Assembly: GCA_927407015.1 (NCBI GenBank)
Contig: CAKMJT010000036.1
Coordinates: 1 to 64,000, forward strand
Direction: 5' to 3'
Length of the DNA stretch: 64,000 nucleotides
DNA from: an uncultured Proteiniphilum sp.
GTDB lineage: Bacteria; Bacteroidota; Bacteroidia; Bacteroidales; Dysgonomonadaceae
The notes below the pieces were generated by a model. It saw only the letters and a program-made list of their open reading frames with translations. It made no database searches and was not told the DNA's origin. The translations under genes were made by a program, and so were the position numbers. Shown here piece by piece: positions 2,693-11,440 of the stretch. The first letter of the stretch is position 1, and each line of letters begins with the position of its first letter.

Positions 2693-2744
2693 GAAACAAT
2701 AGTAAATTGAATCTAATTCTAATTTCCTCTTTGTAATTTGTGTG

Positions 2745-2752
2745 CAAAGTTA
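2745..2752 (-). promoter_or_regulatory. Bacteroidetes -7 box for rseC-rnfB-rnfC
   Basis: The minus strand reads TAACTTTG, a full match to TAnnTTTG, 52 bases upstream of the RseC-like start codon. A clear -33 TTTG is not visible. Confidence 0.5.
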
Positions 2753-3025
2753 AGGATTATTTTTGGGATAAATAAAAGTTTTATGAACTTAACAGGGCGT
2801 TGATATGTTAATAAAAGATCGGGAACTCCGGTAACCGTATTATCCCTGTTTTCACTTGTAATAAATCCTGTAAATTGCTATAGATAATAAATGTCGACGC
2901 CGGAGTCCTTAAAAAGCATTTTTGCTCTTTCGTGTACGAACATTTACTGCGCAAATTTGTTAAAAAGTGAAATTATTATCCGAAGGAAAATTTTAAAAAT
3001 TACATATTAAATACGCTTAACCGAT
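2753..3025. other. Intergenic leader between divergent rnf and aconitase units
   Basis: No gene is seen. A pair of complementary segments, GGAACTCCGG near 2820 and CCGGAGTCC near 2901, could bring the ends of an approximately 80-base stretch together upstream of aconitase. I see no perfect TAnnTTTG on the plus strand; the nearest is CATTTTTG near 2918. Confidence 0.4.
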
Positions 3026-5281
3026 ATGATTTTCGACATTGACATGATTCGCAAGGTATATGCAAATCTACCCGAAAAAATTAAAAAAGCAAAAGAACAA
3101 CTGCAACGTCCGCTGACGCTCACCGAGAAGATCCTTTTTTCCCATCTCTCACCCGGTGTTCCCCTTGTCAACTACAAGCGGGCAGCTGATTATGTGGATT
3201 TTGCTCCCGATCGTGTGGCGATGCAGGATGCTACCGCACAGATGGCATTGCTTCAATTGATGAATTCAGGCCGTACCAGTGTGGCCGTACCTTCCACCGT
3301 GCATTGTGACCATCTGATCCAGGCCTACAAAAATGCGGAGACCGATCTGGAAACAGCCAACATGACCAACAGGGAAGTATATGAGTTCCTCCGAGATGTG
3401 TCCAACAAATACGGTATCGGCTTCTGGAAGCCCGGGGCAGGAATCATTCATCAGGTAGTGCTCGAGAATTACGCTTTCCCCGGCGGCATGATGGTGGGTA
3501 CTGACTCACACACACCCAATGCGGGTGGTCTGGGTATGATCGCCATTGGCGTGGGTGGTGCTGACGCGGTGGATGTGATGGCCGGCCTGCCATGGGAGCT
3601 GAAGATGCCGAAGCTCATCGGCGTGAAGCTGACGGGCAGGCTGTCGGGATGGAGCGCCCCGAAGGATGTGATCCTGAAAGTGGCGGGCATCCTCACCGTG
3701 AAGGGCGGTACCAACGCCATCATTGAATATTTCGGAGAGGGAGCCGCATCGCTGTCGGCTACCGGTAAGGGAACCATCTGTAACATGGGTGCAGAGGTGG
3801 GAGCCACCACTTCCATCTTCCCCTTCGATGAGAAGTCGGCTCAATATCTGGAGAGTACCGGCAGAAAAGAGGTAGCCGATGAAGCACGCAGGATCATGCT
3901 GTATCTGCAGCCCGATCCCGAAGTGGTTGACCATCCTGACGCATACTACGATCAGGTGATAGAAATAGACCTCTCCCAACTGGAACCGCATATCAACGGT
4001 CCGTTCACACCCGATGCAGCCTATACCATCTCGGAGTTTGCCGATGCCGTGAAACGGAATAACTATCCCCGAATGATGGAAGTGGGGCTGATAGGTTCCT
4101 GTACCAACTCATCCTATGAAGATCTTACCCGTGCTGTTTCCATCGTGAAGCAGGCGCGTGAAGAGAGAGTGCCCGTTAAGGCACAGTTTCTCATCAATCC
4201 CGGATCGGAGCAGATACGCTACACCGCCGAACGTGACGGCATCCTCAATGAGTTCGAAAAGGCGGGAGCAACCATCATCGCCAACGCCTGCGGTCCCTGT
4301 ATCGGACAGTGGAAAAGGGATGATGAGGTGCCCAACCGTCCCAACTCGATTGTTACCTCCTTCAACCGAAACTTCGCCAAACGGAACGATGGTAACCCCA
4401 ATACACATGCTTTTGTTACCTCTCCCGAGCTGGTGGCTGCACTGACCATCGCCGGCGATCTCTGCTTTAACCCGCTGACAGATACGCTCGTGAACGACAG
4501 AGGGGAAGCGGTGAAGCTGAACGAGCCCACCGGTTTTGAAATGCCGCCGCGGGGCTATGACGTGAAGGATGCCGGTTATCTGGCGCCATCGGAAGAGGCG
4601 AAGGATGTGGATGTAAGCATCAACCCCGAATCAAACCGCCTCCAGAAACTGGAGCCGTTTGCAGCATGGGATGGCAGTGATTACATCAATCTGCCCCTGC
4701 TCATCAGGGTAAAAGGGAAATGCACCACCGATCACATCTCGATGGCAGGACCATGGCTTCGTTTCCGCGGTCATCTCGACAATATCTCCGACAATATGTT
4801 GATCGGAGCTGTCAATACCTTCAACGATCAAACCAATGCGGTGCTCGATCCCGAAACACTGGAATATGTGGGAGTCCCTGTGCTGGCACGTAAGCTCAAA
4901 TCCAGGGGGGTGGGTTCAATCGTGGTGGCCGAAGAGAACTATGGCGAAGGATCCAGTCGCGAACATGCGGCCATGGAGCCGCGTCACCTGAACGTGAAGG
5001 TAATCCTGGTGAAATCGTTCGCCCGCATCCACGAGACCAATCTCAAGAAGCAGGGTATGCTGGCACTCACCTTTGTCCATAAAGAAGATTGTGAAAAAAT
5101 TCAGGAAAAGGACAAGATCAGCATTACCGGACTCACCGAATTTGCTCCCGGAAGGAATCTGACCGTAGAGCTGCTGCATGCCGATGGCACCAGGGAGACT
5201 TTCGAGGCAGCACATACCTACAATGCACAACAGATAGAGTGGTTTAAAGCCGGCAGTGCACTCAATGCGATGAGGAAATAG
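3026..5281 (+). CDS. acn: Aconitate hydratase
   Basis: This enzyme interconverts citrate and isocitrate through cis-aconitate using a 4Fe-4S cluster. The 751-residue length and order of domains match the mitochondrial-type aconitase common in Bacteroidetes. Visible features are the substrate region [14 protein letters not shown], the cluster cysteines in [10 protein letters not shown] and [11 protein letters not shown], and the C-terminal swivelling domain with [18 protein letters not shown]. It begins a co-directional cluster acn-icd-gltA-idh, with a 25-base gap to icd. The start at 3026 ([12 protein letters not shown]) fits the family N-terminus. Confidence 0.96.
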
Positions 5282-5306: not shown

Positions 5307-6563
5307 ATGCAAATAACGAAACAAGGTGATCAGCTGATTATTCCCGACCATCCCGTGATTCCCTTTATTGAGGGAGACGGCATCGGTAAGGAGATCACTC
5401 CTCATGTACAGCAGATTGTGAACAGCGCCGTAGAAAGGTCTTATGCCGGAAAACGGACGATAGCGTGGCAGGAGGTGCTGGCAGGCGAAAAAGCTTTCAA
5501 CAAGGTGGGCAGCTGGCTGCCTGCAGAGACGATGGACGCGTTCCGGACCTTCCGTGTGGGTATCAAGGGTCCGCTAACCACTCCCATCGGAGAGGGTATA
5601 CGTTCCCTGAATGTGGCCCTGCGTCAGGAACTGGATCTCTATGTCTGCCTCCGGCCCGTGCGATGGTTCAAAGGAGTGGCGACACCGTTGCTGCATCCCG
5701 AGAAGGTACATGTGACCATCTTCCGCGAGAATACGGAAGATATTTATGCCGGCATCGAGTGGGCAGCCGGCACACCCGAGCTGAAGAAGGTGCTGAAGTT
5801 CCTCCAGGAGGAGATGGGTGTTGCCAAGATCCGTTTTCCCGAAACCACCTCCATCGGTGTGAAGCCGGTATCTGTAGAGGGAACGGAGCGATTGGTGAGG
5901 GCAGCCATCACATACGCATTGAAGCACCGGTTGCCCTCAGTGACACTGGTTCATAAGGGTAACATCATGAAATTTACCGAAGGAGGATTTAAAAAATGGG
6001 GTTATGCCCTGGCAGAGAGGGAGTTTCCCGACCGTACCTTTACAGAGCATCAATTCAGGCAGATTGAGACAGAGCGCGGCTTGCAGAGGGCCGTGGAAGA
6101 ATACAACGTAGCTGTGGCATCGGGAAAAGTGTTCATCAAGGATGTGATTGCCGACGCCTTTCTGCAAAATACGCTTCTCAAGCCGGAAGAGTATTCGGTG
6201 ATTGCCACGCTCAACCTCAACGGCGATTATATCTCCGATCAGCTGGCAGCGATGGTGGGAGGCATCGGTATTGCGCCGGGGGCCAACATCAACTACGACA
6301 CCGGACATGCCATTTTTGAGGCGACCCATGGCACCGCCCCCGATATAGTGGGGAAAGGAAAGGCCAATCCCTGTTCCATGCTGCTCTCGGCAGTGATGAT
6401 GCTGGAATACATAGGATGGAACGAAGCCGGCAGGCTGATCACCATGTCGCTCGAAAGACTTTTCGAAAGTGGATATGGCACCTCCGATCTGGCCCGTTTC
6501 ATGGAGAAGGGAAAAGAGTTGACAACTTCGGAATTCTCTCAAAAAGTGATCGAATTCTTATAA
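5307..6563 (+). CDS. icd: Isocitrate dehydrogenase, type I, NAD-type cofactor residues
   Basis: It oxidatively decarboxylates isocitrate to 2-oxoglutarate. The 418-residue protein aligns end to end with E. coli Icd, with GPLTTPIGEGIRSLN carrying the substrate serine (S100, E. coli S113) and FRENTEDIYAGIEW. At the cofactor site the family motif reads HGTAPDIVGKGKANP: D346, I347 and A353 stand where NADP-dependent E. coli Icd has K344, Y345 and V351. Those are the residues known to switch this enzyme to NAD. S393 replaces Y391, although R397 keeps the position of R395. I therefore predict NAD dependence. It lies between acn and gltA, and a second, NADP-type enzyme follows gltA. Confidence 0.93.
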   Translation: MQITKQGDQLIIPDHPVIPFIEGDGIGKEITPHVQQIVNSAVERSYAGKRTIAWQEVLAGEKAFNKVGSWLPAETMDAFRTFRVGIKGPLTTPIGEGIRSLNVALRQELDLYVCLRPVRWFKGVATPLLHPEKVHVTIFRENTEDIYAGIEWAAGTPELKKVLKFLQEEMGVAKIRFPETTSIGVKPVSVEGTERLVRAAITYALKHRLPSVTLVHKGNIMKFTEGGFKKWGYALAEREFPDRTFTEHQFRQIETERGLQRAVEEYNVAVASGKVFIKDVIADAFLQNTLLKPEEYSVIATLNLNGDYISDQLAAMVGGIGIAPGANINYDTGHAIFEATHGTAPDIVGKGKANPCSMLLSAVMMLEYIGWNEAGRLITMSLERLFESGYGTSDLARFMEKGKELTTSEFSQKVIEFL

Positions 6564-6677
6564 TTAGTGATGAATTGTCAAAACAAAACACGATATAATT
6601 ATGTTATGACAAGAACCATCTCCTCAACCTTTACACGGGTGAAGACTATTGCAAATAAACAATTAAAATGATATAGA

Positions 6678-8033
6678 ATGAACAATGAACAAATAACGAA
6701 AACATTATCTGACTCCATTACCTTTACCAGTAATATTGATAAGGAGCTATTTACAAAGATGGGTGTAAAGCGGGGACTCCGTAATGAAGATCACTCAGGC
6801 GTGCTTGCCGGCCTTACCCGTGTAGGTGATGTGGTAGGTTATGAACGTCAGGAGGACGGAACGCTGAAACCTGTTCCCGGGAAATTGTTTTACCGTGGCA
6901 TGGATGTGGAGGAACTGGTGAAAGGAGTTCAGTCTGAGAACAGGCTCGGCTTTGAGGAGACCGCTTTCCTCCTGCTGTCGGGTAAACTACCCACCAGGGA
7001 AGAGCTGGATGCCGTCAATGATCTGATCGCGCAGACCATGCCTCTTAATCACCTGGCCACGATGAATATCCTCTCCCTGAAAGGAAAAAATATCATGAAT
7101 ATTCTGGCAAGAAGCGTACTGGAGCTCTATGCCTACGACGATAACCCGGATGATATCTCACCCGACAACCTGATCAAACAGTCGATCAATCTGATAGCCA
7201 AGTTCCCGACGATCGTCGCTTATGCCTATCAGGTGCTGCGTCACGATCAGATGGGACGCTCACTGCACATCCGTCACCCCTATGAAAACCGTTCTGTAGC
7301 GGAAAACTTCCTCTTTATGATGAAGGGACGAGACAACTATACCGAGCTGGACGTGAAGATCCTCGACCTGGCCCTTATTCTGCATGCAGAACACGGGGGT
7401 GGGAACAACTCCACATTCTCTGTCCGCGTCACCAGCTCCACCGAGACAGATACCTATTCGGCTATTGCTGCCGGCATCGGCTCACTGAAAGGGCCGTTAC
7501 ACGGTGGAGCGAACATCAAGGTGCAGGGTATGCTCGAAGATATGAAGCAGAACGTGAACGACTGGAAGAGCGTGGAACAGGTGGATAGCTACCTGACAAA
7601 GATCCTCAAAAAAGAGGCATTCGACCGTACCGGCCTGATTTATGGTATCGGGCATGCGGTCTACACCATCAGCGACCCGCGTGCGGACCTGCTGAAGGCA
7701 ATGGCACGTGATCTGGCCATTGAGAAAGGACGCCTGGAAGAGTTTGAGTTCATGGAATTGATTGAACAGAGGGCGGTGGAAGTATTCCTTGATTTCAAGA
7801 AAGAAACGGCCAAAGCAAGAACCTGTATCAACGTGGACTTTTATTCAGGGTTCGTGTATGACACCATCGGCCTGCCAAGAGAAGTGTTTACTCCCTTGTT
7901 TGCCATGGCCCGTATTGTGGGCTGGTCGGCACATCGTATCGAAGAGCTGAACTTCGCAAGCAAGCGGCTGATTCGTCCTGCCTACAAGAACGTACGTGAG
8001 AAACAGTCCTTTGTGCCGATGAATGAAAGATAG
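6678..8033 (+). CDS. gltA: Citrate synthase
   Basis: It condenses oxaloacetate and acetyl-CoA to citrate. The 451-residue length exceeds that of the common bacterial enzyme (about 430) and is typical of the Bacteroides form, which has an N-terminal extension. Catalytic residues can be placed: His239 in [10 protein letters not shown], the second His in [12 protein letters not shown], and Asp in [29 protein letters not shown] lies in the region that lines the active site in family members. The gene sits between two isocitrate dehydrogenases; only 5 bases separate it from the downstream one, so those two are almost certainly co-transcribed. Confidence 0.96.
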
Positions 8034-8038
8034 ATAAA

Positions 8039-9265
8039 ATGCAAAAGATAAAAGTAGTGAACCCCGTCGTTGAGCTTGACGGGGATGAAATGACCAGAAT
8101 TATCTGGTCATTTATCAAAGAACAGTTGATCCTGCCCTATCTTGATCTGGATATCAGGTACTACGACCTGAGCATCCAAAACCGTGATGCCACGGACGAC
8201 CAGGTGACGGTGGATGCAGCCGAAGCCATCAACCGGTACAATGTAGGGATCAAGTGTGCCACCATCACCCCCGATGAGGCACGTGTGGCCGAGTTCGGGC
8301 TGAAGAAGATGTGGCGGTCGCCCAACGGCACCATCCGCAATATCGTGGGAGGCACCGTCTTCCGCGAGCCGATCATCTGCAGCAATATACCGCGTTACGT
8401 ACAGGGGTGGACGGCGCCGATCATCATCGGCCGTCATGCTTATGGTGACCAGTACCGTGCCACCGACACCGTGATCAGGGGAAAGGGAAAGCTGACGATG
8501 ACCTTTACCGGTGAAAACGGTGAGACCCAAAGCTGGGAGGTGTTCAACTTCAGGGGTGACGGTGTGGCCATGGCCATGTACAATACCGATGAGTCGATCT
8601 ACGGCTTTGCCCGCTCATCGTTTCAGATGGCGCTGACGAAAAACTACCCGCTCTACATGTCCACAAAGAACACCATCCTGAAGGCTTATGACGGCCGCTT
8701 CAAGGATATCTTCCAGGAGGTGTATGAGAATGAGTTTAAAGATGCGTTCGAAAAGGCAGGCATCACCTATGAACATCGACTGATCGACGATATGGTGGCC
8801 TCGGCGATGAAATGGCATGGTGGTTTTGTCTGGGCCTGCAAGAACTACGATGGCGATGTACAGTCGGACACGGTTGCACAGGGCTTCGGATCACTGGGCA
8901 TGATGTCTTCCGTGCTCGTGACACCCGACGGAAAAACGGTGGAGGCTGAAGCTGCCCACGGAACAGTGACACGACATTACCGTCAGCATCAGCAGGGGAA
9001 AGAGACCAGCACCAACCCTATTGCCTCCATCTTCGCCTGGACACGCGGTCTGGCACACCGGGGAAAACTCGATGAGAACGGTGAGCTGATCGATTTCTGT
9101 GAGAAGCTGGAGCAGGTATGCGTGGAGACCGTGGAAGGAGGAGCGATGACCAAGGACCTTGCCTTGCTTGTGCACGGCAATGATGCTCCGCGCGACAGCT
9201 GGCTCACCACACAGGAGTTTCTGAATGCACTGAAACGAAATCTCGATTTGAAGCTTGGGGGATAG
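8039..9265 (+). CDS. NADP-dependent isocitrate dehydrogenase, eukaryote-like type II
   Basis: This 408-residue enzyme belongs to the homodimeric eukaryote-like subfamily (human IDH1-like), not to the E. coli Icd subfamily of the gene two positions upstream. It opens with [14 protein letters not shown] and contains SPNGTIRNI and QGFGSLGMM. Its cofactor motif [10 protein letters not shown] places R312 and H313 at the positions of human R314 and H315, which bind the NADP 2'-phosphate. [17 protein letters not shown] is the classic downstream block. It converts isocitrate to 2-oxoglutarate with NADPH formation. It is convergent with the following EF-G-like gene, leaving an 18-base gap. Confidence 0.95.
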
Positions 9266-9283: not shown

Positions 9284-11440
9284 CTAATCCTCTTTCTCCT
9301 GCTCTTCGTAGATTTTCAGCAGTTTCTCCTGCACATCGGACGGAACCAGCTCATAGCTGGCGAACTTCATGCTGAAGGAGGCTCTTCCCCCCGAGAGTGA
9401 ACTCAGAGAGGTGGAGTAGGAACTCATCTCTTTCAGGGGTACTTTGGCTTTCAGTTTTTCAAACCCTTTCTCGCTCTCCATGCCCATGATCATGGCACGG
9501 CGTCCCTGCAGGTCGCTCATCACATCACCCATGAATTCTCCCGGTACGGAAACAGTCACATCATATACTGGCTCCAGAATCTTGGGGCCGGCATTCTTAA
9601 AGGCTGTGCTGAAGGCGTTTCTTCCCGCCAGCATAAAGGAGATCTCATTGGAGTCCACCGGGTGCATCTTTCCGTCGTACACGATGACCCGCACATCACG
9701 GGCATAGGAACCGGTGAGGGGTCCCTGCTCCATACGTGCCATGATTCCCTTTAGTATGGCCGGCAGAAAACGGGTGTCGATGGCGCCGCCCACGATACTG
9801 TTGACAAACACCAGCTTACCGCCCCAGTCCAGCTCAATCACCTGCGTATCGCGGTTCTGCACTTTGAACTCCTGGCCGTTAAAGCGATAGATCTCCTGTA
9901 CCGGCATTCCTTCCGTGTAAGGTTCCACAATGAGGTGTACCTCGCCGAACTGGCCGGCGCCACCCGATTGTTTCTTGTGACGGTAATCAGCACGGGCAGC
10001 CTTGGTGATGGTTTCCCGGTAGGGTATCTTAGGCTCGATAAATTCAATCTCAATCTTATCGTTGTTTTCGAGACGCCATTTCAGTGTCCTCAGGTGGAAT
10101 TCACCCTGTCCTGAGACGATCGTCTGTTTCAACTCCTTGGAGACCTCTACCAGCCAGGTGGGATCCTCCTCTTTCATGCGGGTGAGCGCCTCACTCATTT
10201 TCTCGGTGTTCGATTCATTCAGTGCCCTGATGGCCCTGCGGTATCGTGGTTCCGGGTATTTGATGAAATCAAACCTGTTGTCAACGCCCTTGGCATTCAG
10301 TGTATTGCCCGTGCGGACATCTTTCAGCTTTACCGCTGCGCCGATACTGCCGGCCTGCAGTTCCTCCGCCTTGGTGCGGATCTGACCGGCAACCGTGTAA
10401 AGCTGTGCCAGACGTTCTTTCGAGTTACGGTCGGCATTGGTAAGGTCATCTCCTTCCTTTACCGTTCCTGACATCACTTTGAAATAGGAGACCTCACCAA
10501 TGTGCGGTTCAACCGTCGTCTTGAAAAAGAAAAGGCTTGTGGGTGCCGATACATCGGGCTTTACCTCTTCACCCTCTGCATTCACCGGCGCAGGAACATC
10601 GGCAGGGGAGGGTGCCACCATATTCAGAAAGTTCATGATGCGGTGTACCGCCCTGTTTTTTTCGGCTGATGCGCAGAAGAGCGGGAAAAGCGTGTGACTG
10701 ATCATTCCCTTGTGGATGCCGTCGCGCATCTCCTCTTCGGTAAGAGATCCCTGGTCAAAATATTTCTCCATCAACCCTTCATCATTCTCGGCAGCTGCCT
10801 CAAGCAATGTCTGGTAGTATTCGCCTGCTTTCTCTTTTTCACTTTCCGGTATTTCCAGGACATCGGGTTCCGTAGCTCCCGGTTTCCATTTGTATAGTTT
10901 TTGTTTCAGCACATCCACGATGCCGTCGAAGGTGTTGCCGCTGCCGATGGGATATTGTACGGGTACGACCTTGCTGCCGTAGAGCTCTTTGAGACTGGCC
11001 AGGGTGCTGTCGTAATCGGCTTTGTCATGATCCATCTGGTTGATCAGCAGCACGACGGGTTTTTTCATCTTGTCCACGTACCGGAACTGGTTAATGGTTC
11101 CCACCTCCACTCCATTGGCGGCATCAATGAGCATGAGCGCCATATCGGTTACGTTCAGGGCAGAAATCACACCGCCTACAAAATCATCTGATCCCGGGCA
11201 ATCGATGAAGTTCATCAGTTTATCCTTCCATTCATAGGAGAAGACAGTGGAGAAAACAGAATAGCCATATTCCTTTTCTACGGGGAAATAATCACTCACA
11301 GTGTTTTTTCCATCGATTGTCCCACGTCGTTTTATAAGACCACACTCGAAAAGCATGGCTTCTGCGAGAGTGGTCTTACCTGATCCGGCATTGCCAATAA
11401 GGGCAATGTTCTTAATTTCGTTTGTTTTGTACACTTTCAT
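9284..11440 (-). CDS. fusA2: EF-G paralogue (EF-G2-like) lacking the catalytic His
   Basis: A 718-residue protein with the five-domain plan of elongation factor G. The P-loop GNAGSGKT (residues 16-23) is intact, but the G3 motif reads DCPGSDDF (80-87) where EF-G has DTPGHVDF, so the catalytic His is Ser84. Switch I ERGITI is EYGYSV (57-62), and G4 NKxD is NQMD (134-137). The C-terminal domains IV and V look complete, with YRHKKQSGGAGQFGEV and a final SLSGGRASFSMKF. It matches the Bacteroides EF-G2 type, reported to support translation in starvation without GTPase activity. A canonical EF-G is presumably elsewhere in the genome. Transcribed divergently from the P-type ATPase. Confidence 0.88.
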   Translation of the reverse strand: MKVYKTNEIKNIALIGNAGSGKTTLAEAMLFECGLIKRRGTIDGKNTVSDYFPVEKEYGYSVFSTVFSYEWKDKLMNFIDCPGSDDFVGGVISALNVTDMALMLIDAANGVEVGTINQFRYVDKMKKPVVLLINQMDHDKADYDSTLASLKELYGSKVVPVQYPIGSGNTFDGIVDVLKQKLYKWKPGATEPDVLEIPESEKEKAGEYYQTLLEAAAENDEGLMEKYFDQGSLTEEEMRDGIHKGMISHTLFPLFCASAEKNRAVHRIMNFLNMVAPSPADVPAPVNAEGEEVKPDVSAPTSLFFFKTTVEPHIGEVSYFKVMSGTVKEGDDLTNADRNSKERLAQLYTVAGQIRTKAEELQAGSIGAAVKLKDVRTGNTLNAKGVDNRFDFIKYPEPRYRRAIRALNESNTEKMSEALTRMKEEDPTWLVEVSKELKQTIVSGQGEFHLRTLKWRLENNDKIEIEFIEPKIPYRETITKAARADYRHKKQSGGAGQFGEVHLIVEPYTEGMPVQEIYRFNGQEFKVQNRDTQVIELDWGGKLVFVNSIVGGAIDTRFLPAILKGIMARMEQGPLTGSYARDVRVIVYDGKMHPVDSNEISFMLAGRNAFSTAFKNAGPKILEPVYDVTVSVPGEFMGDVMSDLQGRRAMIMGMESEKGFEKLKAKVPLKEMSSYSTSLSSLSGGRASFSMKFASYELVPSDVQEKLLKIYEEQEKED

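What the first reader, a model, noticed from the sequence alone, without database searches (positions are those of the whole stretch)
5307..9265. Two unrelated-subfamily isocitrate dehydrogenases with opposite cofactor residues flank citrate synthase
Seen: the first enzyme carries D346/I347/A353 at the positions where NADP-dependent E. coli Icd has K344/Y345/V351, while the second carries R312/H313 as in human NADP-dependent IDH1. Known: the first set of changes is the classical NADP-to-NAD switch in Icd. Inference: the cell keeps an NADH-forming and an NADPH-forming route from isocitrate side by side, possibly to match redox supply to glutamate synthesis or to Rnf. R397 of the first enzyme keeps an NADP-type arginine, so dual specificity is possible.
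Basis: partly seen in the sequence, partly recalled or inferred. Interest (0 to 1): 0.7.

Follow-up and report, generated by a model that had tools for sequence, protein, structure and literature searches.

The report
Paired NAD/NADP isocitrate dehydrogenases, one cluster
Beside its aconitase and citrate synthase genes this bacterium keeps two different isocitrate dehydrogenases, one apparently built to make NADH and one to make NADPH; each is a known kind of enzyme, but pairing them in one gene cluster is unusual and has repeatedly been undone in its close relatives.

Summary
D346/I347/A353 align with E. coli K344/Y345/V351; 1iso and 2d4v carry the same D/I/A. S393 replaces Y391; only R397 (R395) stays. 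Idh keeps NADP-type R312/H313. NCBIfam would name both "NADP-dependent".
Of 101 family genomes 41 hold both, 38 of 41 on one contig about 3 kb apart; D-I stands in 51 of 51 fetched relatives. A second family has acn-idh-icd with N/A-I-A-S-A residues. Of 392 genomes of the order 6 hold both, 17 expected; all 6 have them in one cluster with a non-KY Icd. In the window's genus icd presence changed at least five times, best read as losses leaving acn-gltA-idh. Where both exist, both are under purifying selection.
Best reading: one cluster with an NADH-making and an NADPH-making exit from isocitrate; in this genus the NADPH exit is the one kept. Cofactor use is inferred, not measured. Known enzymes, unusual arrangement: moderate interest.

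The parts
2730..2765 (+). Bacteroidota-type promoter-like site (TTTG, 17-24 bases, TAnnTTTG; consensus recalled), two overlapping matches about 260 bases upstream of acn; no further + strand match lies before the end of idh
   Evidence: 10 matches in the window, 1.61 expected by chance; a match to a consensus is not proof
3026..5281 (+). acn, mitochondrial-type aconitase (751 aa)
   Evidence: TIGR01340 1083.2 bits, cut-off 825.35
5307..6563 (+). icd, type I isocitrate dehydrogenase with NAD-type residues D346, I347, A353, S393 (R397 kept)
6678..8033 (+). gltA, citrate synthase (451 aa, PRK14032 subfamily)
   Evidence: NF010635 640.1 bits, cut-off 426
8039..9265 (+). idh, type II isocitrate dehydrogenase with NADP-type R312/H313

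Best explanation
The cluster acn-icd-gltA-idh makes 2-oxoglutarate from oxaloacetate and acetyl-CoA by a citrate branch whose last step can run on either of two cofactors. The type I Icd has lost four of the five residues that hold the 2'-phosphate of NADP (K344D, Y345I, V351A, Y391S in E. coli numbers) and most likely forms NADH; the type II Idh keeps R/H and forms NADPH. Shown: gene order, residues, conservation, purifying selection on both genes, at least five changes of icd presence in the genus. Inferred: cofactor use, co-transcription, and that the cell uses the pair to split electrons between energy metabolism (NADH) and biosynthesis such as glutamate formation (NADPH). In the window's genus the NADP enzyme is the one kept where only one is left, so there it probably carries the basic duty and the NAD enzyme a conditional one.
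For: Residue mapping against 1iso and 2d4v and type II chains. D346/I347 in 51 of 51 fetched family Icds; R-H in 62 of 63 type II sequences, the other being a fragment that does not reach the site. Both genes in 41 of 101 family genomes; 38 of the 41 on one contig, low ends 2636-3407 bases apart, 3 on separate contigs. dN/dS of icd 0.028-0.063 in 8 pairs of loci, in the range of acn, gltA and idh. A second family (f65) has acn-idh-icd in 4 of 4 fetched two-enzyme genomes, with an Icd that has lost R395 too (N/A-I-A-S-A). In the order sample 6 of 6 two-enzyme genomes have a non-KY Icd, and none of the 48 genomes read with a KY or RY Icd has idh (70 of 121 Icds read; Fisher p 6e-4 without correction for kinship). 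Eight genomes of the window's genus have acn-gltA-idh without icd; at least 5 changes on the tree, one clade rejected (p-AU 4e-60).
Against: NCBIfam models score the first enzyme over the cut-offs of two 'NADP' families. R397 is kept and may allow some NADP use. No kinetics or expression data. 114 bases lie between icd and gltA, so co-transcription through the cluster is not proven. The six two-enzyme genomes of the order sample belong to two families only, so independent events are few. In the family as a whole the NADP enzyme is not always the one present: eight genomes of g4, g10, g11 and g13 have icd with no idh match, and in g13 one genome (G093) has both on separate contigs while G094 has icd only, so a loss of idh there is possible.
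Confidence: 0.72

Rival explanations
1. Gene displacement in progress: an older NAD-type Icd was joined by a type II NADP-Idh that does the same job; the pair is a passing stage and icd is being lost at random.
For: The two genes exclude each other in the order sample: 6 genomes with both of 392, about 17 expected, Fisher p 4e-4 without correction for kinship. At least five changes of icd presence in the genus. Outer groups g2, g8, g15 and families f37, f98 show acn-gltA-idh without icd in the loci fetched.
Against: Both genes are under similarly strong purifying selection where they coexist; the active-site residues are kept; 41 of 101 family genomes in five of 15 genus groups hold both, so the pair is not recent.
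Confidence: 0.2
2. The pair is a substrate cycle that works as a transhydrogenase: one enzyme oxidises isocitrate, the other makes it again from 2-oxoglutarate and CO2, moving electrons between the NAD and NADP pools.
For: The window's own genome (94.7% complete) shows no PntB match, and the reaction is reversible (general knowledge).
Against: PntB is not rarer where both IDHs occur: 17 of 41 with both, 4 of 31 with idh only, 1 of 12 with icd only, 2 of 17 with neither. G6PD is found in 87 of 101 genomes, the window's included, so NADPH has another likely source.
Confidence: 0.08

Closest known systems
PDB 1iso (engineered NAD-preferring E. coli Icd, recalled) and PDB 2d4v (Acidithiobacillus thiooxidans NAD-IDH, recalled)
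   Same: D/I/A at 344/345/351 and loss of Y391 (alignments).
   Different: The window enzyme keeps the arginine at 395; the printed alignments show S in 1iso and A in 2d4v.
acn-icd-gltA cluster of Bacteroides fragilis (Baughn and Malamy 2002, recalled; not held; PMC11304471 passages give BF638R_3567 citrate synthase, _3568 Icd, _3569 aconitase)
   Same: Same three genes; the Bacteroides gallinarum and Parabacteroides Icds here also lack K344/Y345.
   Different: No idh match lies within the 6 kb flanks of icd in those two loci (L007, L010).
Bacteria with IDHs of different cofactor and subfamily (Congregibacter litoralis; Xylella and Xanthomonas named there; PMC4420465, passages and section 20)
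   Same: Two IDHs with different cofactors in one cell.
   Different: There the type II enzyme is the NAD one and the E. coli-like one is taken to be NADP-specific; that genome has isocitrate lyase; no gene cluster is described in what I read.
Mitochondrial NAD-IDH3 beside NADP-IDH2 (recalled)
   Same: NADH- and NADPH-forming IDHs share one isocitrate pool with a related aconitase and a type II IDH.
   Different: IDH3 is an allosteric oligomer of another type I branch.

Membership tests
Type I NADP-IDH (E. coli Icd; TIGR00183, NF005425) | whole-protein match over curated cut-off | tested here: met
   584.6 bits vs 567.3 and 612.7 vs 490
Type I NADP-IDH (E. coli Icd; TIGR00183, NF005425) | K344, Y345, V351, Y391, R395 that hold the 2'-phosphate (list recalled) | tested here: not met
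   window has D, I, A, S, R: one of five kept
Type I NAD-IDH (homodimeric) | D at 344 with I345 and A351, loss of Y391, as in 1iso and 2d4v | tested here: met
   D346, I347, A353, S393
Type I NAD-IDH (homodimeric) | loss of R395, as in 1iso and 2d4v | tested here: not met
   R397 kept; a secondary feature, not taken as decisive
Type I NAD-IDH (homodimeric) | NAD preference in vitro | not testable with these tools
   needs kinetics
Type II NADP-IDH | family match and Arg/His at the 2'-phosphate site | tested here: met
   NF006156 745 bits vs 335; R312/H313 aligned with solved chains; that Arg/His discriminates is from passages of PMC4360740 and PMC4420465
Type II NADP-IDH | NADP specificity in vitro | not testable with these tools
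   needs kinetics

The most novel reading that the evidence does not exclude
Bacteroidales evolved, probably twice, a built-in cofactor switch at isocitrate: an NAD-type I Icd joined in the acn cluster by an NADP-type II Idh. The two are tolerated together only when their cofactors differ: no KY-type (NADP) Icd was found with idh in the 48 genomes read. In the window's genus the pair is undone by loss of the NADH-making partner, which offers natural icd-plus and icd-minus sister species for testing what the NADH exit is for.
Probability: 0.35. Interest if true: 0.55.

Novelty: new variant of a known kind. Interest (0 to 1): 0.4.

Why it matters
Cofactor choice of isocitrate dehydrogenase is a textbook case of adaptive evolution, usually tied to growth on acetate and the glyoxylate bypass (abstract of PMC5909895 as listed; passages of PMC4420465). 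No isocitrate lyase match was found in any of 101 family genomes and only in 2 of 392 order genomes (8 of 14 control genomes ring), so in these bacteria cofactor choice probably answers to something else. Sister species that keep or lack the NADH-type enzyme in an otherwise equal cluster make that testable. Automatic names ('NADP-dependent') are likely wrong for this Icd group.

Tried and rejected
Transhydrogenase substitute: tested by PntB distribution, no negative association. Isocitrate lyase as what separates NAD- from NADP-type: it is nearly absent in the order while KY-type Icd is common. Decay of icd in the window: dN/dS and active site argue against. Assembly artefact: the four-gene order recurs in many genomes, and absence of icd in G053 is on a single-contig genome. 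RNA element in the leader: no Rfam match at gathering score between 2650 and 9400. Chitinophaga (L016, L017) also has icd beside idh, but its Icd reads R-F-M-I-K and cannot be called NAD-type, so it is not counted. No structure was predicted: identity to solved chains is high enough to map the residues.

Full report
What is there. The window holds four genes on the + strand: acn 3026-5281, icd 5307-6563, gltA 6678-8033, idh 8039-9265. The gaps are 25, 114 and 5 bases. The next long frame, 9284-11440, runs the other way (it reads like EF-G, my recall). A Bacteroidota-type promoter-like site lies at 2730-2765 and no other + strand match lies before the end of idh. Family models name the four as mitochondrial-type aconitase, type I IDH, citrate synthase and type II IDH. 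The closest named record found is Proteiniphilum sp. UBA5267, Icd 84-85% identical, with the same four genes in the same order; the scan may leave out the window's own genome.

Residues. In the printed alignments the window Icd reads D-I and A where E. coli has K-Y and V, and where 1iso and 2d4v have D-I and A. Counting along them gives D346=K344, I347=Y345, A353=V351, S393=Y391, R397=R395. So four of the five 2'-phosphate residues (list recalled) are gone. The ten active-site residues are present. The type II Idh keeps R312/H313, the pair that papers describe as discriminating NADP in type II enzymes (PMC4360740 and PMC4420465, passages). NCBIfam still places the first enzyme over the cut-off of two 'NADP' models: a likely misnaming.

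How common. Of 101 genomes of the family, 53 have Icd and 72 have Idh at E 1e-60; 41 have both, 12 icd only, 31 idh only, 17 neither. Of the 41, 38 hold both on one contig with low ends 2636-3407 bases apart, and 3 (G093, G096, G098) on separate contigs. Of the 12 'icd only', G067 carries an idh fragment at its contig end, and in G039, G048 and G099 the contig ends within about 250 bases after gltA, so they are unresolved; the other eight belong to g4, g10, g11 and g13. D-I at 346/347 was read in 51 of 51 fetched family Icds other than the window's own.

Order sample. Of 392 genomes (at least 90% complete), 121 have Icd and 55 have Idh. Comparing the two lists gives 6 with both: G000, G092 and four of family f65. 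Independence would give 17 (Fisher p 4e-4, no correction for kinship). In all 6 the two genes lie in one cluster: either side of gltA in G000 and G092 (and the window), side by side in f65. In f65 the order is acn-idh-icd and the Icd reads N/A-I-A-S-A, so even R395 is lost. I read the switch residues of 70 of the 121 Icds, not chosen at random (first the best-ranked and the fragmentary matches, then a run of the middle ranks): 48 are KY or RY, 22 are not. All 6 two-enzyme genomes are among the 22. KY-type Icds also occur in acn-icd-gltA clusters (for example L198, L201, L202), so the cluster itself does not decide the cofactor.

History. In a quick tree of 117 Icds with the five cofactor columns masked, one group of 81 rows (support 95, SH-aLRT) holds the window and every row shown that is neither KY/RY nor R-F type, with no KY row inside; f65 branches at its base. 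Outside stand KY-type Icds of Bacteroidota, Bacillus and Myxococcus and the R-F rows. The root is not inferred, but the simplest reading is one change from NADP- to NAD-type inside Bacteroidota. Within the window's genus the Icd tree agrees with the rpoB tree in its main groups (my comparison by eye). Eight genomes of that genus have acn-gltA-idh with no icd between; a ninth, G074, is cut by its contig end. On a tree of acn+gltA+idh (39 rows) icd presence changes at least five times, and holding the eight together is rejected (p-AU 4e-60; group named after seeing trees). Because icd tracks the species tree, losses are more likely than gains. Joined genes may mix histories: between G054 and G051 gltA and idh are far closer than acn and icd (dS 0.20 and 0.08 against 0.67 and 0.96). 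No clear loss of idh with icd kept was seen in g1, g9, g12 or g14, where G048 and G099 are unresolved; in g13, G093 has both on separate contigs and G094 only icd. For the outer groups g2, g8, g15 and families f37, f98 (acn-gltA-idh), loss and original absence of icd cannot be told apart.

Function. dN/dS of icd is 0.028-0.063 in eight pairs, in the range of its neighbours (synonymous change is near or above 1 in several pairs, so values are rough). So where both enzymes exist, both are probably in use. Isocitrate lyase has no match in 101 family genomes and matches in 2 of 392 order genomes. G6PD is found in 87 of 101. PntB is found in 24 of 101, in 17 of the 41 two-enzyme genomes, and not in the window's own genome. 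The own genome has two glutamate dehydrogenases: both score over the NADP-specific model NF006929; one is also over the NADP-specific equivalog NF010634, the other is not and fits the general NF010633 best, and its best solved chains include one titled NAD-specific. So an NAD/NADP pair there too is possible but not settled. I take the best reading to be a two-exit node, NADH for energy and NADPH for synthesis, with the NADPH exit as the basic one in this genus.

Known or new. Each enzyme belongs to a known kind. Two IDHs of different cofactor in one bacterium are reported (PMC4420465, section 20 read); a review says that most prokaryotes are thought to have NADP-IDH only, with a growing number of NAD-IDHs (PMC4518329, section 9 read). 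The acn-icd-gltA cluster is known in B. fragilis (recalled; gene numbers seen in PMC11304471 passages). I found no report of the four-gene pairing in the listings of 'Proteiniphilum + isocitrate dehydrogenase' (3 papers), 'isocitrate dehydrogenase, NAD-IDH, NADP-IDH, operon, coexist' (6 papers) and 'Bacteroides fragilis + NAD-dependent isocitrate dehydrogenase' (none); the papers were not opened. Searches gave longer listings of which I opened four papers in passages or sections. Most subscription papers are not held, so this is a weak negative.

Noticed in passing
G096:C263, G047:C85, G044:C48, G017:C5, G049/G050/G041 C1, G005:C6: PntB transhydrogenase reading frames of 658-1043 aa in which the C-terminal domain (profile about 285-455) matches one to three more times in tandem.
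   Followed up: no
L005 (Zophobihabitans), L006 (Mucispirillum MAG), L009 (Brachyspira innocens): acn-icd-gltA clusters with D-I type Icd (65-68% identical) in records named for other phyla; they fall inside the Bacteroidales group in the trees (long branches), which suggests transfer of the whole cluster.
   Followed up: partly
L096 (G054) and L097 (G051): gltA and idh are far more alike between these two genomes than acn and icd (dS 0.20 and 0.08 against 0.67 and 0.96), as if gltA-idh had been exchanged recently.
   Followed up: no
L016 and L017 (Chitinophaga), L037, L066: Icds with R-F-M at the K344/Y345/V351 sites and I/V and K/N at Y391/R395; in Chitinophaga the gene sits beside a type II idh. 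Cofactor unclear.
   Followed up: partly
G072, G073 (same genus, 99% complete), also G003, G021, G095: Genomes at least 97% complete with neither IDH at E 1e-60 and no G6PD match; G072 and G073 have PntB matches.
   Followed up: no
G384:C1:1950757-1951983: Type II idh of a single-contig f65 genome read with one TAG inside; no Icd match is listed for that genome.
   Followed up: no
L183 (G209) 3665-4915: A divergent Icd with S-L-A-E-K at the five sites.
   Followed up: no
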